Shown piece after piece: positions 8,073 through 40,141 of a stretch of 64,000 nucleotides of DNA. Under the pieces are notes generated by a model. The model was not told where the DNA came from. It was given only the letters and a program-made list of their open reading frames with translations, and did no database searches. Source of the DNA: a virus; IMG/VR virus record IMGVR_UViG_3300042010_000030, positions 1 through 64,000 of that record; one strand, 5' to 3'. The position numbers and the translations under genes are program-made. The stretch's first letter is position 1, and each line of letters starts with the position of its first letter.

Positions 8073-8080
8073 GATAAATA
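8073..8080 (+). promoter_or_regulatory. Late promoter motif GATAAATA
   Basis: One change from T4 TATAAATA, located directly after the gp46 terminator and 67 nt before the next ATG. Confidence 0.6.
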
Positions 8081-8146: not shown

Positions 8147-8980
8147 ATGATCACATTAGGTGAATATCTGTCACTCCACGAAAAGCTGATGGTCTTCGGT
8201 AAAGTCGCATACCCGAAGTTTGGCAACGTGGTCATTCTCGCGGGTGGTGCAGGTAGCGGTAAAGGATTCCAGAAGTCGAACCTGCTCGGGATCGAAGGTA
8301 AGAGCTTCGACGTTGACGCACTGAAAGAGCTTGCGGTGAAGTCTACCAAGTTCGCACAGAAGGTCAAAGAAGAGACAGGTCACGACATCAAGACCTTCGA
8401 CATGAAGAACCCCGACAACGTTGGTAAAATGCACGACATTCTGTCGAGCGTCTACAACATCACGAACAAGAGCGATCAGACCGTATTCGCGTCGATACTC
8501 GCTTCAGCCGCAGACCGTAAGCCCAATCTGATCTTCGACGTTACGCTGAAAGACATGAGCAAACTCGAATCGATCACGCGCAACGCACAAGAGCTTGGTT
8601 ACAGTAAAGTGAACATTCACATCGTCTGGGTGGTGAATGACATCAGCGTTGCAATCGACCAGAACGCCAAGCGTAGTCGGGTTGTCCCTGATGAAATTCT
8701 GATGGCGACCCATGAGGGTGCTGCTCTGACCATGAAGAAAATACTTGACATGGGCGACAAGCTGCTCAAGTACATGGACGGTGCGATTTACGTCAGCTTC
8801 AACCGCGTCGGCACTGATACCACTATTGCGAAGTCTGGTAAAGGTGGTGCATACGTCAAAGACGCCAACTACATCTTGGTCAAGAAGCAAGGTTCACCGC
8901 AATTGTCAAGCGCTGAGCTAGGCGATGCCGTCTACAACAAGATCAAAGATTATGTACCTAAAGTGGACACATGGGGTTGA
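8147..8980 (+). CDS. Zeta-toxin-like P-loop kinase
   Basis: 277 aa. GGAGSGKG at 33-40 is a Walker A loop. DVDALK and the later VWVVNDISVAIDQNAKR...VPDEILMATHEGA segment resemble the zeta-toxin/AAA kinase arrangement (strand, Arg lid, VP-E--H). Zeta enzymes phosphorylate UDP-N-acetyl sugars, but the substrate here is unknown. The N-terminus MITLGEYLSLHE resembles a capsid-targeting peptide and a late promoter precedes the gene, so it may be packaged and injected. Confidence 0.55.
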   Translation: MITLGEYLSLHEKLMVFGKVAYPKFGNVVILAGGAGSGKGFQKSNLLGIEGKSFDVDALKELAVKSTKFAQKVKEETGHDIKTFDMKNPDNVGKMHDILSSVYNITNKSDQTVFASILASAADRKPNLIFDVTLKDMSKLESITRNAQELGYSKVNIHIVWVVNDISVAIDQNAKRSRVVPDEILMATHEGAALTMKKILDMGDKLLKYMDGAIYVSFNRVGTDTTIAKSGKGGAYVKDANYILVKKQGSPQLSSAELGDAVYNKIKDYVPKVDTWG

Positions 8981-9733: not shown

Positions 9734-9764
9734 AAGCCCCTTAGTTGGGGCTTTCCTGTTTTCT
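9734..9764 (+). terminator. Intrinsic terminator
   Basis: AAGCCCC (9734-9740) pairs with GGGGCTT (9747-9753) around TTAGTT, followed by TCCTGTTTTCT. Confidence 0.85.
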
Positions 9765-9769
9765 AAATA
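9764..9769 (+). promoter_or_regulatory. Late promoter motif (C)TAAATA
   Basis: It lies immediately after the terminator and 38 nt before ATG 9807. It also decides the start of the next gene: an ATG at 9771 would fall at or before the expected transcription start. Confidence 0.6.
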
Positions 9770-9806
9770 GATGGATAATCACCTTACACATAAAGGGCAC
9801 ACCTTA

Positions 9807-12800
9807 ATGGAAGACCAAGAATTGATGCTTGAATCTCTGCTGACTGAGATTCTTGATTTGAACAGTGCGAAGTATTTCGACTTCCAAGAAACGCCGGCAA
9901 ACAAGATGCCAGGCATCCCTACGCTCAAGTTCCAGACCGAGTTCGTCACTGACAAAAACAAAGAGTACGCGTTCCGTGTGCTGCGCAAGCCTGAGATCGG
10001 TCGTAACAGTCGTTGGGTGTTCGTATCGATCCGTGCGGCCGGTGGTAAACTGAAAAGTCAAGACCTGATGTTTGATGTCGGTGACATGAAGAAAATCCTG
10101 GTCACCCTGCTCAAGTCGTACCAGCTGTACAAAGAAAGTCCTGACGGTCACCAGACTTCGTCCTACGACTTCACCTTCCCTGCGAAGTATGAGCGCTTTG
10201 CTCCGTTCATCGTCAAGGTCATTCAGCGCGCATTCAAGACCGAACCACGCGCTGCTCTGGATCTGGCCGGCGCTGTCGCTGAAAAGACTGTGTTCCACTT
10301 GTACTACACCAACCGTCAAAGTACTGTGCCGTTCTTCGGTGGTAAAGACTTCGACCCTGTTGCTGTCAAGTCGAACCCGTTCTATGCGAGCCTGGTCAAA
10401 GCGACTCCACCTGATGCCAAGTCTGACGGTTCAGCGGCTGTCGCAGTTGCTGTAGCGAACCAGATTGTCACTGCTACGACTCCGACCCCTGTCGTCGCCC
10501 TAGTTGCCCCTGTCGTCAATACTACGCCGAAAGTCGATGCAGTAGACCCTATGAACAACCCGACAGCGTTCAATGACTCGCTGTTCAACCGTCTACACTT
10601 CGCTAAAGGGCGTGACGACTTCGCGGCGATTCTGCGTGATGTACGCGTGCATCGCAAGTACATGCAAGACCACTTTGAACCGATGTTCAACGCGCTGTAC
10701 GTCAGCAAGCCACTCGACCAGATGTTCGCCAACGTCAACATGAAAGAATGGGACGAAGGTATGGGCTTCTATCTGAAGCGCTACGACCCGTCTGCCTACG
10801 CGTACATCAAGGTGCATGCTGCAATCTCTATCGCCAGCGTACCAGACATGGTAAAAGCGTTGGGTGACGTTCCTAAGGAACTTGCTCAGTTGCGTTCGAG
10901 TCCTGTGATGAACAACAGTGCATGGTCTGTTGCTAAGATGCTCGCTGGCGTCTATAGCCGCGTGTGCGCGTACATCGTCAACATTACCTCCGACACGACT
11001 GCTCAGAGTTCGTTCCTAGCTGACCAAAGATTGATCACTGGTATCATCAACGGCATGACGAATGCTTCGTTTGGTAATACTATTGCTGCTGTCGAAGCGT
11101 ACCTTGCAGATAGCCAGACAAGTATCGCCGACGGTGACCGTATCAAGTCGGCGCTCGTGTTGTATTTCTACAGCATGATGACCGCTTCAATGGCAGTTGA
11201 TATCGTTCGCACTTATGCAAGTAACCCGAAAGTTCGTACCATGCCTAACGGTGACTACAACGTTGATGACATCGACAGCCTCTTCACCAACTCTGCGGTG
11301 ATCATCGATGCACTTGACTCGTTGTTCACAAGTCGGACAATGATCACCTTCGGCGCTTACACGGGTCCGGAAGATGGTCTAGTTGCAATGTTCAAATCAA
11401 AGCAGTGGATGAACCTGTCGAATGCTCTTCGCCTTTCTGCAACATACGACAAGGAAACTTTCTCGCGTATGATGGTTGACTTCGTTAAAGGTGCCAGCTC
11501 CGACTTTATCATTGAGACCTTCGACGACGTTATTACTGGCAGCATGTTCCCGTACAACGTTGCGACGGTACGCACAACTGTGCAAGCTGCATACGGTGAT
11601 CGTATTGCGCAACTTCCAGATGATGTCAACCTCAGTTCAGATATCGAAAAACGTCTGTTTGCTCTATTTGTTGCATCGCCTTCAGCGGCGCTTGTACCAG
11701 CGGCGACTCTGTACTTCAGAAAGCGCGTTCAACGTCTATACGATGTCGCCCTGATCGAACATGACAACTACAGCTATGGTGATGACGCGTTTGTGAAACG
11801 CATCCAGCCTATCGGTATCGATATGGACGCATACGTCCGTAACATCGCCCGTACTGTCGTTTTTGGTCAGAGTAGCTTTTTCATCTCAACGATCATCGTG
11901 AAGGGCCTGGCAAAGTATCTGACATCGGCTCAACTCGATACACTGCTGATGGCCGGTATCATCACCAATGACGGTCTGATGGTCATGTATTATGAGTCGC
12001 GTTCGAAGGTTGTTCTCGATAAGTACAACGAACGTGTTGGTATTATGACCCTGTTGAATAACAACACTGGTCGGATGTACGGTACGACTTGGGCTATGTC
12101 AAAAGCTCTGTACAACATCAGTTCTGACGCTGTTAAGGCTGAGGCGGCAGTGAAGCTGCTTAAAGACCTAGCGACATTCCCTAACGAAGTGGCCGATATC
12201 CTAGGTACAGAAGTAGTCAGCGAACATGTGATTACAGACCCAACATTTAACTATAGGTACAATGCCGCTGAGGTCTTTGCTGTACTGAACGCTAAAGCGT
12301 CTGATGCCGCTATTGCTCGCACTTCTGCAAGTGGTCGTGTGGTTAGCGTCTCTTCGATTATCGATGGTCTCAACCGAAGCGGTAACATGGACAAGCTGTC
12401 AAAGGCGTCCTATGAATCGCTGTTCGCATCGAGTAACAGTTATTTCCGTGGGACAAAGCCATCGCAACGTCGTGAGTTCGAAGACGCAAATGCTCAGGTT
12501 GTTGTAAGTGCGTGGAAGAGTGATCCAAAAGTCGGTGAAGCACTGTTCAATCAGTTGACCACAGACGACAAGAAGATCATTACCAAAAGCGTAATCGCCA
12601 ACAAGTTCGTCGCGGTGACTCGTGATGCGCTTGCAGGTGACCATGTGCCAATCAAGCCACTTGTTGACCTCGATGAAAAACGTATCTTGGACATCCTCAA
12701 GTACAACAACATCAAAGTACCACGTGCGCCGAAAATTGACGACAATGCGACATTGACCGACGTGATGTCGAAGACAATTAACAAATCGGACATCAACACC

Positions 12801-13730
12801 CTTGCTGTTACCGAAGTGCCTAAGACTGCTGAAGAGCTTGAGCAAATGTCGGTGGAGTACGATGCATTCAACCGCTATCGTCACGGTAACATCGCAGCCA
12901 AGATCGTTCGTGCATTCGACGTAAGCATCCCGATTCAGGACGCTGGTTATGCTGCATGGACTGCTAAGATGGCCGCTGAAGGGACTAACTCGAAGATCAT
13001 GCGCCCTGTGTTCCACGGTACGGGCACAGTCGCTGCTTCGATGATCTTGCGTTACGGATTCCGTGTGATCAAGTCGAATGATCCTTCAGTTGCTGGTCGT
13101 ATGCTCGGTGATGGGATCTACTTCAGTAACGTGATCGACAAAGTCAGCCAGTACATGTCTGATGGTCGTATGACGCGTGGTCTTGGTGCGAAGGGCTACA
13201 TCTTTGAGATGGAAGCATCTCTTGGTCAGTATGATCGCGACTTCAAAGCAGCCGGCCCAGGCACTGGTTATAGCGAAACAAGTGTGATTAGTCCTGAGTG
13301 GGCGGTGTTCAACGTCAACGAACAAGTGAAAATTTATCGGGCATATCAGTGCGAACTGATTGACAAAGATATGATGTCCGAGCTAAAATCGAAACACGGT
13401 ATAAATGAAAATACAACCGCTGTAGGTATCAAACACTTTAAGGGGTTTATCAATGAGGCGCTAGGGGGATCAATGAACAGGAAGAACAAGGTCGTCTACA
13501 TCTTTATGGACGGTACTGTTCCTGTATCGAAAGTCAAGTCTGTCGAGTTCGAAGACTTTGATGCCAAGAAGTTCGGTAGCCACGTTCATCTTGACTGGTC
13601 TGGTTCGGGTCCTACTGTTCAGTTCGACACGAACGGCGAAGGCGGCGTGTTCTGCATTCGCTACACCAATCAGTTCATGCACGATGGTAAACAGATCGAC
13701 AAGTTCATTGCTCTCCTTAACGAGAAGTAA
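9807..13730 (+). CDS. Giant virion-type protein with C-terminal PARP-like ADP-ribosyltransferase
   Basis: 1307 aa from ATG 9807 (MEDQELMLESLL). A large N-terminal and middle part of no recognised family, with an Ala/Val/Pro-rich linker near 210-250, precedes a C-terminal ADP-ribosyltransferase domain. The PARP-type triad is visible: H1070 in FHGTG, Y1105 in GIYFS, and E1164 in SPEWAVFNVNEQVKIY. T4 Alt and ModA/B use R-S-E instead, so this is a different subclass. A late promoter and large size suggest packaging and injection, like Alt. About 80 residues follow the ART domain. The target is unknown. Confidence 0.72.
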   Translation: MEDQELMLESLLTEILDLNSAKYFDFQETPANKMPGIPTLKFQTEFVTDKNKEYAFRVLRKPEIGRNSRWVFVSIRAAGGKLKSQDLMFDVGDMKKILVTLLKSYQLYKESPDGHQTSSYDFTFPAKYERFAPFIVKVIQRAFKTEPRAALDLAGAVAEKTVFHLYYTNRQSTVPFFGGKDFDPVAVKSNPFYASLVKATPPDAKSDGSAAVAVAVANQIVTATTPTPVVALVAPVVNTTPKVDAVDPMNNPTAFNDSLFNRLHFAKGRDDFAAILRDVRVHRKYMQDHFEPMFNALYVSKPLDQMFANVNMKEWDEGMGFYLKRYDPSAYAYIKVHAAISIASVPDMVKALGDVPKELAQLRSSPVMNNSAWSVAKMLAGVYSRVCAYIVNITSDTTAQSSFLADQRLITGIINGMTNASFGNTIAAVEAYLADSQTSIADGDRIKSALVLYFYSMMTASMAVDIVRTYASNPKVRTMPNGDYNVDDIDSLFTNSAVIIDALDSLFTSRTMITFGAYTGPEDGLVAMFKSKQWMNLSNALRLSATYDKETFSRMMVDFVKGASSDFIIETFDDVITGSMFPYNVATVRTTVQAAYGDRIAQLPDDVNLSSDIEKRLFALFVASPSAALVPAATLYFRKRVQRLYDVALIEHDNYSYGDDAFVKRIQPIGIDMDAYVRNIARTVVFGQSSFFISTIIVKGLAKYLTSAQLDTLLMAGIITNDGLMVMYYESRSKVVLDKYNERVGIMTLLNNNTGRMYGTTWAMSKALYNISSDAVKAEAAVKLLKDLATFPNEVADILGTEVVSEHVITDPTFNYRYNAAEVFAVLNAKASDAAIARTSASGRVVSVSSIIDGLNRSGNMDKLSKASYESLFASSNSYFRGTKPSQRREFEDANAQVVVSAWKSDPKVGEALFNQLTTDDKKIITKSVIANKFVAVTRDALAGDHVPIKPLVDLDEKRILDILKYNNIKVPRAPKIDDNATLTDVMSKTINKSDINTLAVTEVPKTAEELEQMSVEYDAFNRYRHGNIAAKIVRAFDVSIPIQDAGYAAWTAKMAAEGTNSKIMRPVFHGTGTVAASMILRYGFRVIKSNDPSVAGRMLGDGIYFSNVIDKVSQYMSDGRMTRGLGAKGYIFEMEASLGQYDRDFKAAGPGTGYSETSVISPEWAVFNVNEQVKIYRAYQCELIDKDMMSELKSKHGINENTTAVGIKHFKGFINEALGGSMNRKNKVVYIFMDGTVPVSKVKSVEFEDFDAKKFGSHVHLDWSGSGPTVQFDTNGEGGVFCIRYTNQFMHDGKQIDKFIALLNEK

Positions 13731-34753: not shown

Positions 34754-34827
34754 GGGCCCATAGCTCAATGGAGAGCTGAGTCCTCATAAGACTTGGGTTG
34801 TCGGTTCGAGTCCGGCTGGGCCCACCA
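34754..34827 (+). tRNA. tRNA with CAU anticodon (Met or Ile2)
   Basis: GGGCCCA acceptor pairs with TGGGCCC; the anticodon arm GAGTC-CTCATAA-GACTT gives CAU; T-loop TTCGAGT; encoded CCA. CAU could be elongator Met or a lysidine-modified Ile tRNA; the stem cannot decide. Confidence 0.9.
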
Positions 34828-34867
34828 TATTTTGAAAGCAACTCCACTAACTGTAAGGAAGTAAACG

Positions 34868-35008
34868 ATGTCCGAAATCAAAGCTTGCAAATGTAAACAC
34901 GCTGCACAAGACGCCCTGCACGGTGCCGGCCAGCGCGTACACAACCCTAACGCTAAAGGCGCACTGAAGTGCACTGTATGTGGCGCTGGCGGCGAGAAAA
35001 AGAAGTAA
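34868..35008 (+). CDS. Small zinc-ribbon protein
   Basis: 46 aa: CKCKH near the N-terminus and CTVCG near the end could bind one zinc, with the QDALHGAGQRVHN middle common in small phage proteins of this type. AAGGAAG lies upstream. Lys-rich tail. Confidence 0.75.
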   Translation: MSEIKACKCKHAAQDALHGAGQRVHNPNAKGALKCTVCGAGGEKKK

Positions 35009-35065
35009 TCGCTAACTACTGATATGAGGGTGGCAAGCGTCACCCTCACTACAAGGAACACTGTA

Positions 35066-35482
35066 ATGAAGCTGATCGACACCCTGAAAGAAATGCGCAA
35101 TCTTTACCGCAAAGCGCCTAACGTGGTGACTGAGTTCAACCTCTTGACTCTGGTAGTCGGTGAGTGTGAACGTGTAGGTAAAGAGGTTGATGACCTCGCA
35201 GTCCTTTCGATCCTGCGCAAGATGCACGGCTCGAACGCCGAGTGCCTGAAGGTGGCATGCTCGCGGGTTAGTGGTAAGCTGATGGATGAAAACAATTTCA
35301 TCAATCAACTGCTGGAAAAGTACACACCGACACAGTTGAGCGCTTCCCAGATCATCCAGCGCATCACACAAAACAGCATCACTAACATGGCCGATGCCAT
35401 GAAGTGGCTGAAGGCTAACTGTGCTGGTCAGTACGACGGTAAGGTTGCTTCTGACGCTGTCAAACAACACTTTGCCAAGTGA
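35066..35482 (+). CDS. GatB/YqeY-like domain protein
   Basis: 138 aa from ATG 35066, AAGGA at 35053-35057. A helical protein resembling YqeY/the GatB tail: an N-terminal pair ending ...LAVLSILRKM, and a QIIQRITQNSITNMADAMKWLKAN...GQYDGKVASDAVKQHF C-terminus like the GatB/YqeY 'N-g-vMk-lk' block. That domain binds tRNA in amidotransferases, and the gene sits in the tRNA cluster. Confidence 0.7.
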   Translation: MKLIDTLKEMRNLYRKAPNVVTEFNLLTLVVGECERVGKEVDDLAVLSILRKMHGSNAECLKVACSRVSGKLMDENNFINQLLEKYTPTQLSASQIIQRITQNSITNMADAMKWLKANCAGQYDGKVASDAVKQHFAK

Positions 35483-35676
35483 AATTCGATCGGAGTAGAC
35501 GTGACATGCGCAGTCGATTCGCAAACGTTGATTACGAACCACAGCCACTTGATAGGAGCGAGCAATATGAAACGGGACTGAAACGTGTAGGTGAGCATAC
35601 CAACTACGCCCAGGAAGATTTGGCTTTCGATGAAGGTCAATCCAAGGGCACTACTGAACAGGAAACCGAAGAATGA
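35479..35676 (+). CDS. Small hypothetical protein
   Basis: 65 aa, start GTG 35479 overlapping the upstream stop (GTGA). Highly charged (DRSRRDMRSRF, then TEQETEE). An internal ATG at 35506 is possible. No domain recognised. Confidence 0.6.
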   Translation: MKFDRSRRDMRSRFANVDYEPQPLDRSEQYETGLKRVGEHTNYAQEDLAFDEGQSKGTTEQETEE

Positions 35677-35897
35677 AATACCGCGTACAGATGCAAGACA
35701 CTGTCAATGGCCAAGCGTTCAACTTCGCTATGGTCTATGATGCCTGCATGCCAAACGGTGCAAGTGACTCTGCTATTGCCGAGTTTCCTGAAGCGACTGT
35801 TGTTAGCATAACTGTCGTCCAACCGAACTTGGGTGAATTGCTGCAACAAGCAATTGATAAAATTGCTGTAGAGGAGTTGCTACAACGGGTAGCATAG
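35673..35897 (+). CDS. Small hypothetical protein
   Basis: 74 aa, ATGA overlap with the preceding gene. A strand-rich N-terminal half (YRVQMQDTVNGQAFNFAMVYDA) and a helical tail; unrecognised. Confidence 0.7.
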   Translation: MKYRVQMQDTVNGQAFNFAMVYDACMPNGASDSAIAEFPEATVVSITVVQPNLGELLQQAIDKIAVEELLQRVA

Positions 35898-35906
35898 TTG
35901 TATAAT
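35877..35906 (+). promoter_or_regulatory. Sigma70-like promoter candidate
   Basis: TTGCTA 35877-35882, 18-nt spacer, perfect TATAAT 35901-35906. It leads into a very short frame and the tRNA cluster. Confidence 0.5.
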
Positions 35907-35933
35907 TGGCACTACTATATAGGAGTGTAGGGA

Positions 35934-36020
35934 ATGAAGAAACTGTTGCAAGATTGGGGCAAGTGGTTAAGGTTGCAATGTCGAGTGACAGTGGCATACC
36001 TCAAAACCCTGAAGTATTGA
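35934..36020 (+). CDS. Very short frame, 28 aa
   Basis: MKKLLQDWGKWLRLQCRVTVAYLKTLKY is basic and amphipathic, preceded by GGAGTG 11-16 nt upstream and a TATAAT promoter. It may be a real peptide or a leader. Confidence 0.4.
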   Translation: MKKLLQDWGKWLRLQCRVTVAYLKTLKY

Positions 36021-36032
36021 AAAGATTTACGG

Positions 36033-36076
36033 TATCAGGATAAAATAATTCGAAAAAGCTTTGTTTTATCCTGATA
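36033..36076 (+). terminator. Hairpin upstream of tRNA cluster
   Basis: A 13-bp perfect stem, TATCAGGATAAAA (36033-36045) with 36064-36076, loop 18 nt. A TATACT follows at 36085-36090 and TAAATA at 36095-36100, possibly promoters for the tRNA block. Confidence 0.7.
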
Positions 36077-36214
36077 TTAGAATATACTAAGCACTAAATA
36101 GACATACAGAAACAAAGCTGTTCTAGCAACAGCGTTCAATATGATCAGGATGAAGCTAGGCTACTCTGAGGCCTAGATTAAAGGTTAATAGAGCGCTGCT
36201 GTAGAAAAGTTTAT

Positions 36215-36292
36215 TGGTAGTGAGCCATCTAGGTGAGGGCACTGGACTGTTAATCCAGATGAAGTAGGGTTCGAATCCCTGACTACCAGCCA
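36215..36292 (+). tRNA. tRNA-Asn (GUU)
   Basis: TGGTAGT/ACTACCA acceptor, anticodon arm CTGGA-CTGTTAA-TCCAG, T-loop TTCGAAT, G73 and encoded CCA. Confidence 0.9.
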
Positions 36293-36297
36293 AATTC

Positions 36298-36381
36298 GCC
36301 GACTGAAAGTTTGCTGGGACAAACGCTGGACTGTAAATCCGGTACTGAGGTTATGTGGTTCGATTCCATCAGGCGGCACCA
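36298..36381 (+). tRNA. tRNA-Tyr (GUA)
   Basis: Class II tRNA with a long variable arm; anticodon loop CTGTAAA, T-loop TTCGATT, encoded CCA. One A-G mismatch in the acceptor stem. Confidence 0.85.
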
Positions 36382-36522
36382 AATTTACCTTAGGGTGAAT
36401 CGCGAGCGGCGCGGAGACCGTATCCTTATGAGTTGGAAGGCATAACTCTTAGCCTGAGATACGGGCTGTAGCTAGGAAGTGCGCCGTTTAGCCGCCAAAT
36501 ACCTAGCAGTTCAAGAATTTGG
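36382..36522 (+). other. Structured spacer between tRNAs
   Basis: Nested complementarity: GCGGC...GCCGC, GGCGC...GCGCC, CCGTATC...GATACGG and a TATGAGTT/AACTCTTA inner pair. The motif TAGCCTGAGATACGGGCT (36450-36467) recurs with one deletion at 38079-38095. It could be a small stable RNA or a processing element. Confidence 0.4.
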
Positions 36523-36550
36523 TTGACATGTGCTTAGACTCTAGTAGAAT
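36523..36550 (+). promoter_or_regulatory. Sigma70-like promoter inside tRNA cluster
   Basis: TTGACA 36523-36528, 16-nt spacer, TAGAAT 36545-36550, 33 nt before a small gene. Confidence 0.75.
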
Positions 36551-36582
36551 GGACACAAGAGACAACACATATGGAGAGCAAG

Positions 36583-36717
36583 ATGATCGTTTATATCGTA
36601 ACAGTGCAGGGTCGGTTCGTAGATGTCTTCTTGAATGAAGTGGATGCTGAAAATCTGCGAAAGTCGTTGTACATGGGTGGTCATGATGGTATCTCTGTAA
36701 TCAGTAAATCGATATAG
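36583..36717 (+). CDS. Small hypothetical protein, 44 aa
   Basis: MIVYIVTVQGRFVDVFLNEVDAENL... has a beta-hairpin-like start and a short helix. GGAG precedes the ATG by 6 nt and a good promoter lies upstream, so it is likely expressed. Unrecognised. Confidence 0.65.
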   Translation: MIVYIVTVQGRFVDVFLNEVDAENLRKSLYMGGHDGISVISKSI

Positions 36718-36732
36718 GATTTAAAAGTTCAT

Positions 36733-36808
36733 CAGAGTGTAGCTCAGTTGGTAGAGCGCTTGGTTTGGGACCAAGAGGTCGCAGGTTCGACGCCTGTCAC
36801 TCTGACCA
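36733..36808 (+). tRNA. tRNA-Pro (UGG)
   Basis: CAGAGTG/CACTCTG acceptor, anticodon arm CTTGG-TTTGGGA-CCAAG, T-loop TTCGACG, A73 and encoded CCA. Confidence 0.92.
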
Positions 36809-37148
36809 GTTTCACCCAGTGTAGCGGAAGGTGGGCTTAGAAGCAGCCATCCTTTAAAGAGTGGAGCAAGATTCGAACGTGCGGTTTGCTGGGAATGTAA
36901 ACCCAAGCAGCATCTCGAATTGGTAAGTAAGAAGGCACCCCGGAGACGGTAAGGCTAACTTCTCCTTTGGCGTAATAGCGCACCTCTACACTGATCAATT
37001 TGTACCAATATATTCGAAAGGATCTATTGGTGGATGTAGCGTCAGCTCGAACAGCACTCTATCAACCTAGGAGAAGCTAGCGAGTCAGTTCAACTAGGTC
37101 GTGGTTGCCCTTATTGACATACGCTACATCAACCAATACATCTTTCAC
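36809..37148 (+). other. Spacer with tRNA-Tyr remnant
   Basis: No gene seen in these 340 nt. Positions 36871-36901 repeat parts of the tRNA-Tyr gene at 36298: ATTCG, GTTTGCTGGGA and TGTAAA occur in the same order with the D-arm shortened and 12 nt lost before the anticodon. It looks like a decayed copy. The rest includes GC-rich inverted segments. Confidence 0.45.
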
Positions 37149-37225
37149 GGGTCGCTAGCTCAGCTGGTTAGAGCTCCAGACTTTTAATCTGGATGTCCTG
37201 AGTTCGAATCTCAGGCGACCCACCA
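37149..37225 (+). tRNA. tRNA-Lys (UUU)
   Basis: GGGTCGC/GCGACCC acceptor, anticodon arm CCAGA-CTTTTAA-TCTGG, T-loop TTCGAAT, A73 and CCA. Confidence 0.93.
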
Positions 37226-37409
37226 GTTTTGTACCCGAGCTACCACAGGCACTAAGCGCTTTCGAGCGTGCCCAAAGTGGATAGGTACTGTCACTCCAAT
37301 CTCGGTGAGGTGTGACCTCTAAACAGTACAGAGAAAAGTGGGCTGTGGTAAGCTCAAGCAACTGTAAAGCGCCAGGCCTTGACATGCTTTGAAACTGTCT
37401 TGAGAATTC

Positions 37410-37494
37410 GCGGACGTGGCGGAACTGGTAGACGCGCTTGGTTTAGGCCCAAGTTCTTTCGGGAGTGAGAGTTCGAGTCTCTCCGTCCGCACCA
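37410..37494 (+). tRNA. tRNA-Leu (UAG)
   Basis: GCGGACG/CGTCCGC acceptor, anticodon arm CTTGG-TTTAGGC-CCAAG, long variable arm, T-loop TTCGAGT, encoded CCA. Confidence 0.93.
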
Positions 37495-37662
37495 AATGCA
37501 AGCGATACGAAGTGGGGTTCAATACCCCGGCTCGAAAGGTCTAATCGGAATGACTTCGAGGTAGCTTGACAGAGAGGCAACGGTGCGCTGGCTAAGTACA
37601 CGTCACTCGCACCTTGTCTCTCGGATCTAATTCAATCAACGCTGTACAGTGGAGTAATACAT
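37495..37662 (+). other. Structured spacer between tRNAs
   Basis: Contains a T-arm-like GGGGTTCAATACCCC (37513-37527) without a surrounding cloverleaf, and a composite stem GAGAG...GGTGCG paired with CGCACC...CTCTC (about 37574-37621). No gene seen until the small ORF at 37663. Confidence 0.4.
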
Positions 37663-37827
37663 ATGTTCGGTAGCATGTTTAATAGTCTGGTTGGTGTTGC
37701 AAGTGACGTTGTGAAAGTCGTGGCAGCCCCTGTAGAGATCGCGCTTGATGTCACCCGTGCAGTCACTAAGCCGATTGCTGACGTCGCGCAGGAAGCTGTT
37801 AAAGAGATCAAGAAAGACTTGAAGTAA
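37663..37827 (+). CDS. Small amphipathic protein, 54 aa
   Basis: MFGSMFNSLVGVASDVVKVV...KEIKKDLK: a hydrophobic/amphipathic helix with a basic tail, GGAG 8-11 nt upstream. It resembles small phage proteins of unknown role that associate with membranes. Unrecognised family. Confidence 0.65.
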   Translation: MFGSMFNSLVGVASDVVKVVAAPVEIALDVTRAVTKPIADVAQEAVKEIKKDLK

Positions 37828-37929
37828 TGCACTAAATCACTGTATAGTCCTTGTTCGTCATTAAATCTGATGGAGAGGCAGTGCCCGACGTCGAGAACGT
37901 CCCTGTATGTAGGTAAGCAGGAAGAATTC

Positions 37930-38006
37930 AGAGGGTTGGCGAAGAGGCCTAACGCATCAGGTTTTGATCCTGACATTCCTTGGTTCGAATCCAAGACCCT
38001 CTACCA
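37930..38006 (+). tRNA. tRNA-Gln (UUG)
   Basis: AGAGGGT/ACCCTCT acceptor, anticodon arm TCAGG-TTTTGAT-CCTGA, T-loop TTCGAAT, A73 and CCA. Confidence 0.9.
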
Positions 38007-38171
38007 AATTGGAAGTCACGCCCAATAGCGCGTTCAACTGCGTAGAGTGTTGATACGTAGCCTTCGATTCGATAAAGGTAGCCTGAGAACGGGCTTTAGG
38101 TGAATGGAGCGATGCAACCGCGCGTGTAGTTGTGTCAAGTCTCACTAGCGTAGAACCAGTTCAAGAATTTT
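38007..38171 (+). other. Structured spacer between tRNAs
   Basis: No gene. Holds TAGCCTGAGAACGGGCT (38079-38095), nearly the same as 36450-36467, flanked by GC-rich segments. Confidence 0.35.
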
Positions 38172-38247
38172 GCAGGTTATGGTGTAATCTGGGTACACGG
38201 CGTGGCGACGGCTTCGCAGTTGAAGTTCGAATCTTCTAACCTGCCCA
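38172..38247 (+). tRNA. tRNA-like element, anticodon unclear
   Basis: GCAGGTT/AACCTGC acceptor, a D-arm GTGT...ACAC and a T-arm GAAG-TTCGAAT-CTTC are clear, but the anticodon arm cannot be folded into a 5-bp stem with a 7-nt loop and U33. CCA follows directly without a discriminator base. Either a decayed tRNA or an unusual tRNA-like RNA. Confidence 0.5.
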
Positions 38248-38252
38248 AATAT

Positions 38253-38354
38253 GGGGTGATAGTGTAATTGATTGCTGGTAGGCCTTCTGGTTATCACGGC
38301 AGCACGCTTAGCATCGAGCTATGAAGAGTCGTTCGAATCGACAATTCCCCGCCA
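38253..38354 (+). tRNA. tRNA-like element, long, anticodon unclear
   Basis: Starts GGGG, ends CCCCGCCA, and has a T-arm GTCG-TTCGAAT-CGAC, but only four acceptor pairs are sound and the 102-nt length leaves no clear anticodon arm. Confidence 0.4.
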
Positions 38355-38374
38355 AACAAAGTGAAGAGGTTGTT

Positions 38375-38581
38375 ATGTCTCGTGATTATTCAAGTCTACA
38401 TACAAAGCAACTGTTGAACTTGCTACAAAGCTTTCGCAAAGGTTACTCGCCATTCGAAGAGCAAATTAACTTCGAAGTCGAAAGCACCGCAGTACGTGCT
38501 GAGCTTGCAAAGCGTCCGCATATACCAAACAAGGTTGAGTCTCGTGTAATCAGACAAGCCGCAGCTAAGAAGGGTCGATAA
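38375..38581 (+). CDS. Small hypothetical protein
   Basis: 68 aa from ATG 38375, preceded by GAAGAGG. Helical: LHTKQLLNLLQSFRKG then a basic RPHIPNKVESRVIRQAAAKKG tail. Such proteins are common in T4-like genomes without known role. It overlaps the next start by 1 nt. Confidence 0.7.
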   Translation: MSRDYSSLHTKQLLNLLQSFRKGYSPFEEQINFEVESTAVRAELAKRPHIPNKVESRVIRQAAAKKGR

Positions 38582-38781
38582 TGTCGCGAAGTGTAAGAGG
38601 TTCAAAGGGTGATGGTTATGAGTACTGGGGTAAGCGGGCACTGAGCCAATGCGATCCAGGTCGCTCAAGCAAGAAGATCACACTCGGTATGGAACGTGCC
38701 GCAACGCGCCAACAAATATATGATGAGGTTCAAAGTGCGAACAGTGAAGATAACACCCCATGCGAGGAAGAGGTTTCGTGA
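38581..38781 (+). CDS. Small hypothetical protein
   Basis: 66 aa, basic N-terminus with RGSKGDGYEYWGKRALS and a C-terminal ...MERAATRQQIYDEV helix. The GSKG-GYEYW-KR pattern recurs in phages; function unknown to me. It overlaps the following gene in another frame. Confidence 0.65.
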   Translation: MSRSVRGSKGDGYEYWGKRALSQCDPGRSSKKITLGMERAATRQQIYDEVQSANSEDNTPCEEEVS

Positions 38782-39058
38782 GCGTTTTCGCTTACAGTTC
38801 CATCCTGACATCTTCAGAGAAGGCCGCGATCTATCAATGATCCGCAAGCTCTTCAGTGAAGCAAAGTCAGTTGACTTCGCACTGATGCAGTCAAGAGGTC
38901 ATTACAACGCGCTGTGTATCAAACACGGTAAAGTTGTAAGAGTGTCAAAGGTTAGAAACTTTGTGTTCGTTCACGGTGAGCCAGATGAACATAAAGAAGT
39001 AGTCATATATACAATGATGCAAGAGGGCAGCGCCCGGATTGCTCATAAACAGTTTTAA
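38720..39058 (+). CDS. Hypothetical protein with RelE/DUF4258-like start
   Basis: 112 aa from ATG 38720 (or 38723). VKITPHARKRFRERF resembles the H-x-x-R-x-x-x-R start of DUF4258/RelE-like toxins, followed by strands VVRVSKVRNFVFVHG. It overlaps the upstream gene by 62 nt, unusual even for this genome. The toxin-like fold is a weak inference. Confidence 0.55.
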   Translation: MMRFKVRTVKITPHARKRFRERFRLQFHPDIFREGRDLSMIRKLFSEAKSVDFALMQSRGHYNALCIKHGKVVRVSKVRNFVFVHGEPDEHKEVVIYTMMQEGSARIAHKQF

Positions 39059-39059
39059 T

Positions 39060-39135
39060 GGTCACGTGGCTTTAAAGTCACACTCGGATTCGACATGTCG
39101 GTTCGAGACTGAAGGTAAAGCTTCGGTGATCGCCA
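39060..39135 (+). tRNA. tRNA-like element with extended anticodon hairpin
   Basis: 76 nt with encoded CCA, an acceptor of 5-6 pairs, a D-arm-like hairpin, a 25-nt hairpin with 8 pairs in place of the anticodon arm (loop centred on CGACATGTC) and a last arm CTGAAG-GTAAAG-CTTCGG without the usual TTC. Not a standard tRNA. Confidence 0.4.
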
Positions 39136-39141
39136 GTTTGT

Positions 39142-39218
39142 AGCGGGGTAGTTCAGCTTGGTAGAACAGAGGTCTCATAAGCCTCATGTCGTAGGTTCAA
39201 ATCCTGCTCCCGCATCCA
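39142..39218 (+). tRNA. tRNA-Met (CAU), initiator-like
   Basis: Anticodon arm GAGGT-CTCATAA-GCCTC gives CAU. The first base A39142 faces A39214, an unpaired 1-72 position as in initiator tRNA, then GCGGGG pairs with TCCCGC. Encoded CCA. The three G-C pairs of a classical initiator anticodon stem are only partly present. Confidence 0.8.
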
Positions 39219-39225
39219 GTTTCAC

Positions 39226-39301
39226 GCCGCTATAGCTCAGTTGGTAGAGCGTCTGACTTGTAATCAGAGGGTCTCGGGTTCGAATCCTGATGGCGGCACC
39301 A
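39226..39301 (+). tRNA. tRNA-Thr (UGU)
   Basis: GCCGCTA acceptor, anticodon arm TCTGA-CTTGTAA-TCAGA, T-loop TTCGAAT, encoded CCA. Confidence 0.92.
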
Positions 39302-39312
39302 GTTTTGAAATG

Positions 39313-39425
39313 TAGTAGGTTTTGGTAAGGTATAGGGTTCGATTCCCTGCTCTGTTGTTTGGGGCTCTCTTCTGGTGGAGAGATCAAGGCTTAAGACTGC
39401 GGGTTCGATTCCCGACACCTACTGC
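39313..39425 (+). tRNA. tRNA-like element with two T-arms
   Basis: AGTAGGT (39313-39319) pairs with ACCTACT (39416-39422), but the 113-nt unit carries two T-arm-like hairpins (GGG-TTCGATT-CCC at about 39334 and 39401). CTTAAGA resembles a UAA anticodon loop but lacks a stem. Possibly two fused, decayed tRNA genes. Confidence 0.35.
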
Positions 39426-39443
39426 ACTTCAGATTAATTTTAT

Positions 39444-39522
39444 GAGTTGGCATGGTGGCTGTGTTGATCTGTGGAGTACTACACGATTGATGCGGTCGAG
39501 GGTTCGATCCCCTTAACAACTC
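39444..39522 (+). tRNA. tRNA-like element, anticodon unclear
   Basis: GAGTTG pairs with CAACTC and a T-arm GAGGG-TTCGATC-CCCTT is well formed, but no proper anticodon arm is seen and CCA is not encoded. Confidence 0.4.
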
Positions 39523-39533
39523 TCTCATATTAT

Positions 39534-39609
39534 GGCCGAGTGGCTGAACGTAAGAGCACAAGCGAACAGTGGACACTTGAATACGAAGGTTTAACTCCTT
39601 CCTCGGTCT
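39534..39609 (+). tRNA. tRNA-like element, anticodon unclear
   Basis: GGCCGAG pairs with CTCGGTC (one G-U) and a perfect 5-bp last arm GAAGG-TTTAACT-CCTTC is present, but the middle cannot be folded into a normal anticodon arm and CCA is absent. Confidence 0.35.
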
Positions 39610-39619
39610 TCCTAACAAT

Positions 39620-39695
39620 ACCCCAGTAGTTCAATTGGCAGAATGACGGATTCCAAATCCGTTGGTTGGTGGTTCGACTCCATCCTGGGGTGCCA
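39620..39695 (+). tRNA. tRNA-Trp (CCA)
   Basis: ACCCCAG/CTGGGGT acceptor, anticodon arm ACGGA-TTCCAAA-TCCGT, T-loop TTCGACT, G73 and encoded CCA. Confidence 0.92.
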
Positions 39696-39723
39696 AATTC
39701 ATTAGACAGCAAGAGATTCAGCG

Positions 39724-40044
39724 ATGGCTTCAAAGAACGACATTACAGGCGATAACATTCAGACACGCGCAGCAAGTGAGGCCTACGCCAACAACTACGA
39801 CAATATCTTCGGCAAGCGTTCGCTACCTGAAGGTCGAATCGAAGTCAAACACTTGAGAAGTGGTCAGATTGTATATGACCTCGATGTAGATGACCATTAC
39901 AAAGTCTACTCAGCACCGAAGATCGTTAACGGTCAATGGGAATGTGAGACAACAAGTTCAGGTGACTATGTTGTCGTCTTTCACGAAGGTGCTAAGCTGT
40001 GGACAAGTGAAGCAGCGCGTGATGCCGAGATGGGCACAGAGTAA
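39724..40044 (+). CDS. Hypothetical protein
   Basis: 106 aa. Strand-rich middle (GRIEVKHLRSGQIVYDLDVDDHYKVYSAP), conserved-looking W residues and an acidic end; not recognised. It sits between tRNA-Trp and tRNA-Ser. Confidence 0.7.
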   Translation: MASKNDITGDNIQTRAASEAYANNYDNIFGKRSLPEGRIEVKHLRSGQIVYDLDVDDHYKVYSAPKIVNGQWECETTSSGDYVVVFHEGAKLWTSEAARDAEMGTE

Positions 40045-40053
40045 AACGAATAT

Positions 40054-40141
40054 GGTGACGTGGTCGAGTGGCCTATGGCGGCGGTCTTGAAAACCGCAGA
40101 CTGGAAACGGTCCGTGAGTTCGAATCTCACCGTCACCTCCA
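40054..40141 (+). tRNA. tRNA-Ser (UGA)
   Basis: GGTGACG/CGTCACC acceptor, anticodon arm GCGGT-CTTGAAA-ACCGC, long variable arm, T-loop TTCGAAT, encoded CCA. Confidence 0.93.

What the first reader, a model, noticed from the sequence alone, without database searches (positions are those of the whole stretch)
13014..13360. PARP-type H-Y-E ADP-ribosyltransferase on a 1307-aa late protein
T4-like Alt/Mod enzymes use an R-S-E triad. This domain shows H1070, Y1105 and E1164 in PARP-like contexts at the end of a giant protein under a late promoter. It may be an injected effector with protein, RNA or DNA targets different from Alt.
Basis: partly seen in the sequence, partly recalled or inferred. Interest (0 to 1): 0.74.

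Follow-up and report, generated by a model that had tools for sequence, protein, structure and literature searches.

The report
Phage-packaged PARP-type ADP-ribosyltransferase, Alt-like

Summary
Window 9807-13730 (+) encodes a 1307-aa protein whose residues ~998-1188 form a PARP-type catalytic domain (Pfam PARP above cut-off; predicted fold matches PARP1/tankyrase, Z 16). H1070, Y1105 and E1164 are the PARP triad; across 39 family members Y and E are invariant and H is kept in 37. The domain itself is not new: relatives in Aeh1, pf16 and Menderavirus were already annotated as PARP-like, and viral PARP-family ARTs were surveyed in 2022.

What I add is how it is probably deployed. (1) A T4-type late promoter core (TAAATA) precedes 26 of 35 family genes (5% expected), here TCTAAATA at 9762. 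(2) An L-x-E site near the N-terminus and a conserved F-x-x-x-[LI]-x-E site in a disordered linker after the ART match T4 prohead-protease sites; T4 Alt is cut at just such N- and C-terminal sites. (3) In one relative, adjacent Alt-type (R-S-E) and PARP-type genes share a 62%-identical N-terminal module. Best explanation: a head-packaged, twice-trimmed, injected H-Y-E counterpart of Alt. Packaging, injection, activity and target are inferred, not shown.

The parts
9762..9769 (+). T4-type late promoter -10 element TCTAAATA
   Evidence: core TAAATA upstream of 26 of 35 family genes against 5.4% background; same core 19-33 nt before late-looking genes of this contig; CTAAATA is the published Aeh1 late promoter (PMC1524935)
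9792..9797 (+). ribosome-binding site AAAGGG, 9 nt before the ATG
   Evidence: read in the sequence
9807..13730 (+). CDS, 1307 aa PARP-type ART giant protein (144.8 kDa)
   Evidence: full-length 40% homolog pf16 gp92
9807..9848 (+). predicted N-terminal propeptide, residues 1-14 (MEDQELMLESLLTE), cut after L-T-E14
   Evidence: LxE in the first ~30 aa of 35/36 family members, mostly LxEN[ST]LY; T4 Alt is cut at ITE-6 (PMC5694885); Alt relatives have LNE-VF, as in the G002 PARP-type protein
9849..10421 (+). N-terminal module (residues 15 to about 205), found in pf16 gp92 and in both ARTs of G002
   Evidence: 0 non-synonymous against 15 synonymous changes over residues 1-250 versus L011
10557..12506 (+). 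poorly conserved, mostly helical middle region, residues 251-900, function unknown
   Evidence: no PHROG family; low-confidence helical model; dS and dN both raised versus L011
12798..13370 (+). PARP-type ART domain, about residues 998-1188
   Evidence: Pfam PF00644; fold match to PARP1/tankyrase Z 16.4
13014..13016 (+). catalytic H1070
   Evidence: 37 of 39 family members H; aligned with the PARP1 H
13119..13121 (+). catalytic Y1105
   Evidence: 39 of 39 Y
13296..13298 (+). catalytic E1164
   Evidence: 39 of 39 E; aligned with the E of PARP1 LLYNEYIVYD
13437..13457 (+). second predicted prohead-protease site FKGFINE|A (residues 1211-1217) in a disordered linker
   Evidence: motif at this place in 29 of 40 non-redundant members against about 2% expected; linker pLDDT under 50; pf16 gp106 (major capsid protein per PMC5587285) carries FMKSINE|AAG
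13458..13727 (+). C-terminal tail, 90 aa, predicted to be removed at head maturation
   Evidence: conserved YxFxDGxIP...VxFxDF module; T4 Alt loses 63 C-terminal aa at LTE-619 (PMC5694885)

Best explanation
It is a late-made, head-packaged and injected ADP-ribosyltransferase that works like T4 Alt but uses a PARP-type (H-Y-E) catalytic domain. Inferred steps: gp55-type late transcription; entry of the precursor into the prohead core through its N-terminal targeting peptide and module; removal of about 14 N-terminal and 90 C-terminal residues by the prohead protease, leaving residues 15-1217 (133 kDa) inside the head with the DNA; ejection into the next host; NAD+-dependent ADP-ribosylation of a host macromolecule at the start of infection. 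Shown computationally: domain, fold, triad, conservation, late-promoter core, the two conserved site motifs, and (in one relative) an N-terminal module shared with an Alt-type ART. Not shown: packaging, cleavage, injection, activity, target, mono- or poly-ADP-ribosylation.
For: PARP fold and triad. Late promoter core in 26/35 relatives against 5.4% background and before late-looking genes in the same contig. C-terminal site in 29/40 non-redundant members against about 2% expected, in a disordered linker. N-terminal L-x-E in 35/36. T4 Alt cut by gp21 at ITE-6 and LTE-619: PMC5694885; the same two-site layout can be read in 15 of 16 Alt sequences. pf16 capsid protein FMKSINE|AAG matches pf16 gp92 FTNFINE|AG and window FKGFINE|A. 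Adjacent Alt-type (phrog_802, 1.3e-30) and PARP-type genes in G002 share an N-terminal module, 62% identity over 165 aa. Purifying selection on N-terminal module and ART.
Against: No virion proteomics or enzyme assay of any member was found. Family members are related, so the counts behind the motif tests are not independent. A bare L-x-E within 30 aa is common by chance; only its position and context are telling. Eleven of 40 members lack the strict C-terminal motif at the searched place (some of these are truncated or were mis-anchored by the script, e.g. OC, L037, L056, L058). The window contig shows no head genes, so its own protease specificity could not be read; pf16 was used instead. 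T4 Alt's N- and C-terminal regions show no profile homology to those of this protein.
Confidence: 0.74

Rival explanations
1. [quoted passage not shown]
For: PMC9503650; an ADP-ribosylglycohydrolase gene lies directly upstream in Aeh1, Ah1, PX29 and phiAS5.
Against: No ARG match in 12 of 17 records carrying the ART, among them complete pf16, Marzo, X1 and OC; a late promoter lies between the two genes and the ARG has no TAAATA core and no targeting motif; giant size and two protease-like sites are not toxin-antitoxin features.
Confidence: 0.08
2. It is made late but stays in the producing cell, modifying host or phage proteins during assembly or lysis; the L-x-E sites are incidental.
For: Late promoter core alone would fit; no packaging data exist.
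Against: C-terminal site conserved in an otherwise variable disordered linker; N-terminal module shared with an Alt-type protein in G002.
Confidence: 0.12
3. It is a virion structural or ejection protein whose ART domain is no longer active.
For: Most of the protein is a non-ART, mostly helical region; two relatives have Y or S in place of the triad H.
Against: Triad, plus M1099, K1112 and Y1116, kept in 37-39 of 39 members; 8 synonymous and 0 non-synonymous changes in the ART segment against L011.
Confidence: 0.06

Closest known systems
T4 Alt (R-S-E ADP-ribosyltransferase, head-packaged, injected)
   Same: Late protein with ART domain towards the C-terminus, L-x-E site near the N-terminus, second L/I-x-E site after the ART with a 60-90 aa tail; in G002 the two types share an N-terminal module.
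   Different: Catalytic domain is PARP-type H-Y-E, not R-S-E; about twice as long; no detectable profile homology to Alt's N- or C-terminal regions; packaging not shown.
Phage PARP-domain proteins: Aeh1ORF131c (PMC1524935), pf16 gp92, Menderavirus ADP-ribosyltransferase, phrog_18612
   Same: Same family: 40% identity over 99% of pf16 gp92; 30-37% over the C-terminal 270-460 aa of the others.
   Different: Sequence divergence and an unrelated or highly divergent N-terminal and middle region in all but pf16; no function had been assigned beyond the domain name.
PARP1/PARP2/tankyrase catalytic domain (PF00644)
   Same: Fold (Z 16), H-Y-E triad, and residues aligned with PARP1 M890, K903 and Y907 (PARP1 numbers from memory).
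   Different: About 20% identity; the PARP1 serine after K903 is V/S/A/I here; no recognised DNA-damage-sensing or regulatory domain; bacterial host.
Viral PART family and ART-ARG pair of Aeromonas phages (PMC9503650)
   Same: The survey places phage ARTs of this type in the PART family and suggests that many phage ARTs are head-packaged.
   Different: It reads the Aeromonas ART-ARG pair as toxin-antitoxin; late promoter, two processing sites and the module shared with an Alt-type protein are not described in the passages read.

Membership tests
PARP-type (PF00644, H-Y-E) ADP-ribosyltransferase | curated profile match | tested here: met
   27.1 bits against cut-off 26.7, E 3.6e-6; 10 of 10 relatives match
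PARP-type (PF00644, H-Y-E) ADP-ribosyltransferase | PARP catalytic fold | tested here: met
   Foldseek E 2.9e-11 to PARP1; VIA-align Z 16.4, rmsd 3.4-4.0 over 178-187 residues
PARP-type (PF00644, H-Y-E) ADP-ribosyltransferase | H-Y-E triad | tested here: met
   H1070, Y1105, E1164; H in 37/39, Y and E in 39/39
PARP-type (PF00644, H-Y-E) ADP-ribosyltransferase | NAD+-dependent ADP-ribose transfer; poly- or mono- | not testable with these tools
   needs an enzyme assay
Alt family (R-S-E, phrog_802, PF03496) | R-S-E catalytic domain | tested here: not met
   H-Y-E domain; no PF03496 or Alt match in the contig
Alt family (R-S-E, phrog_802, PF03496) | Alt N- and C-terminal regions by profile comparison | tested here: not met
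   hhalign probability 1.3% or less; the PARP-type protein of G002 does share its N-terminal module with an Alt-type neighbour
Head-packaged, prohead-protease-processed effector (works like Alt) | L/I-x-E processing sites at both ends | tested here: met
   LLTE14 and FINE1217; conserved in the family; sequence motif only, cleavage not shown
Head-packaged, prohead-protease-processed effector (works like Alt) | late expression | tested here: met
   promoter core only, 26/35 relatives against 5.4% background; transcription not measured
Head-packaged, prohead-protease-processed effector (works like Alt) | presence in the virion and injection | not testable with these tools
   no virion proteomics found
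ART-ARG toxin-antitoxin pair | adjacent ADP-ribosylglycohydrolase | tested here: not met
   no PF03747 in the 92.8-kb contig nor in complete pf16; adjacent only in four Aeromonas phages

The most novel reading that the evidence does not exclude
A capsid-delivered enzyme of PARP1 type that poly-ADP-ribosylates bacterial proteins or nucleic acids on entry: an injected PARylation system of a phage, standing in for Alt in phages in which none was found (pf16, Menderavirus) and possibly supplied with NAD+ by the phage's own salvage genes. Residues aligned with PARP1 M890, K903, Y907 and E988 are invariant, so chain elongation is not excluded.
Probability: 0.13. Interest if true: 0.8.

Novelty: new variant of a known kind. 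Interest (0 to 1): 0.52.

Why it matters
If right, T4-like phages deliver two mechanistically different classes of ADP-ribosyltransferase from the head, R-S-E (Alt) and H-Y-E (PARP-type), in one known case on a shared N-terminal module. The chemistry and targets should then differ from Alt's arginine modification of RNA polymerase, which bears on how phages take over Pseudomonas, Stenotrophomonas, Xanthomonas and Aeromonas hosts, several of them with no Alt found. It also questions a proposed phage toxin-antitoxin pair, and it is readily testable by virion proteomics of phages already isolated.

Tried and rejected
Homology of T4 Alt's N-terminal or C-terminal region with those of this protein: hhalign not significant; hmmsearch of the C-terminal tail against T4 Alt gave no hit. 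T4 consensus TATAAATA: no exact match in the window, and one-mismatch matches are no more than chance; only the comparative test with the TAAATA core was informative. The strict form CTAAATA alone is in 7 of 36 relatives. Domain assignment of residues 1-900: no PHROG, AlphaFold model with pLDDT 56, so its fold was not searched. A bare L-x-E near the N-terminus was not treated as evidence by itself because it is common by chance. Cellular relatives: a scan of 84,980 species genomes gave one hit, a contig in an Anaerolineae bin. Virion proteomics of family members: none found in the literature held.

Full report
What is there. Window 9807-13730 (+) encodes a 1307-aa protein; the open frame could start at 9771 (1319 aa), but TCTAAATA at 9762-9769 and AAAGGG at 9792-9797 make ATG 9807 the likely start. 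The contig is a 92.8-kb virus record; its nearest named relative is Pseudomonas putida phage pf16, a peripheral T4-like phage.

The catalytic domain. Pfam gives only PF00644 PARP, E 3.6e-6, just over the curated cut-off; ten of ten aligned family members match. A 39-sequence family profile finds PARP1 in the PDB at 1.6e-7. The AlphaFold model of residues 902-1307 has pLDDT 84.6 and matches PARP1 (Foldseek E 2.9e-11) and PARP1/tankyrase at Z 16.4. H1070, Y1105 and E1164 fall on the PARP1 triad at exactly the coordinates given. Y and E are invariant in 39 members and H is kept in 37; M1099, K1112 and Y1116, aligned with PARP1 residues M890, K903 and Y907 (numbers from memory), are invariant too. 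Against a near-identical contig (L011) the ART segment has 8 synonymous and no non-synonymous changes.

Not new as a domain. A 2006 paper listed Aeh1ORF131c as a PARP-domain protein (E 0.026) and the neighbouring Aeh1ORF132c as an ADP-ribosylglycohydrolase (PMC1524935). A 2022 survey lists the PARP-type PART family among the commonest viral ARTs and suggests many phage ARTs are packaged (PMC9503650). Homologs are in 34 phage records and 55 IMG/VR loci; a scan of 84,980 prokaryote species gave one hit, a contig in an Anaerolineae bin, so at that scan's sensitivity the family looks confined to phages.

Late expression. CTAAATA is the published late promoter of Aeh1. The core TAAATA lies near the start of 26 of 35 non-redundant family genes against 5.4% of background windows. 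In the window's own contig the same core precedes minus-strand genes g109, g110, g112 and g119, in a block that looks like tail and baseplate genes (their identity was judged by position and sequence, not by a family search).

Head targeting and processing. T4 Alt loses six N-terminal residues at ITE-6 and 63 C-terminal residues at LTE-619 through the prohead protease (PMC5694885); Alt relatives keep this layout. The PARP-type family has L-x-E near the N-terminus in 35 of 36 members, mostly as LxEN[ST]LY and often preceded by a targeting-peptide-like stretch such as MKFKEFL, and F-x-x-x-[LIMF]-x-E between the ART and a C-terminal module in 29 of 40 members against about 2% expected. In the window this is FKGFINE|A, in a linker with pLDDT below 50. 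The pf16 major capsid protein (gp106) has FMKSINE|AAG near its N-terminus, where a propeptide would end, and pf16 gp92 has FTNFINE|AG. The counts are not independent because the proteins are related; what matters is that a short motif is kept in a linker that otherwise varies.

A bridge to Alt. In the IMG/VR genome G002, an Alt-type protein (phrog_802, 1.3e-30) and a PARP-type protein are neighbours and share their N-terminal module (62% identity over 165 aa); both carry LNEVFD near the start, as Alt relatives carry LNEVF. The window and pf16 proteins carry a divergent version of this module. Profile comparison does not tie the module to T4 Alt's own N-terminal region, so this shows module sharing in one genome, not common descent with T4 Alt. 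Alt-type ARTs are also present in the Aeromonas phages, and none was found in pf16, Marzo, X1 or OC.

Mechanism. Best explanation: a late, head-packaged, twice-trimmed and injected ADP-ribosyltransferase that works like Alt with a PARP-type active site. It is not a member of the Alt family (R-S-E not met). The target is unknown; mono- or poly-ADP-ribosylation cannot be decided. The middle 650 residues are mostly helical in a low-confidence model, poorly conserved and unexplained.

Rivals. The 2022 survey reads an ART-ARG pair of certain Aeromonas phages as toxin-antitoxin; it does not name the genes in the passage read, but this family is the likely one. The glycohydrolase has no match in 12 of 17 records tested and is adjacent only in four Aeromonas phages, where a late promoter lies between the genes. 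A late but unpackaged enzyme, and an inactive structural protein, are less likely but not excluded.

Score. The domain is known and the packaging is inferred, so interest is moderate; the inference is specific, conserved across phages of several hosts and directly testable.

Noticed in passing
window 8147-8980 (+): Zeta-toxin-like P-loop protein (PF06414, 6.5e-9) with a late-type GATAAATA at 8073 and an L-H-E near its N-terminus (MITLGEYLSLHE); its homolog (48% identity) lies directly after the PARP-type gene in G002 with N-terminus MSFTKFLESRE. It may be another packaged protein.
   Followed up: partly
window 10557-12506 versus L011: The middle region (residues 251-900) differs from the near-identical contig L011 by 90 non-synonymous and 107 synonymous changes, while the N-terminal module and ART have no non-synonymous ones: looks like recombination or fast change confined to the middle.
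   Followed up: partly
L014:4108-5286 and L040:3882-4991: Family members with Y or S instead of the triad histidine (FYGTG, FSGTG): possible altered or inactive enzymes.
   Followed up: no
records W01-W06, W09 and G002: A nicotinamide phosphoribosyltransferase-type gene (PF04095) is in 8 of 8 other ART-carrying records tested, not in the 92.8-kb window contig; such genes are common in large phages generally.
   Followed up: partly
window 34754-40141: Array of ten tRNA genes in an ORF-poor stretch.
   Followed up: no
L100 (Anaerolineae bin contig CAKZJX010000007.1): A PARP-type family member 49% identical sits in a contig binned to an Anaerolineae genome; probably a phage contig in the bin.
   Followed up: no
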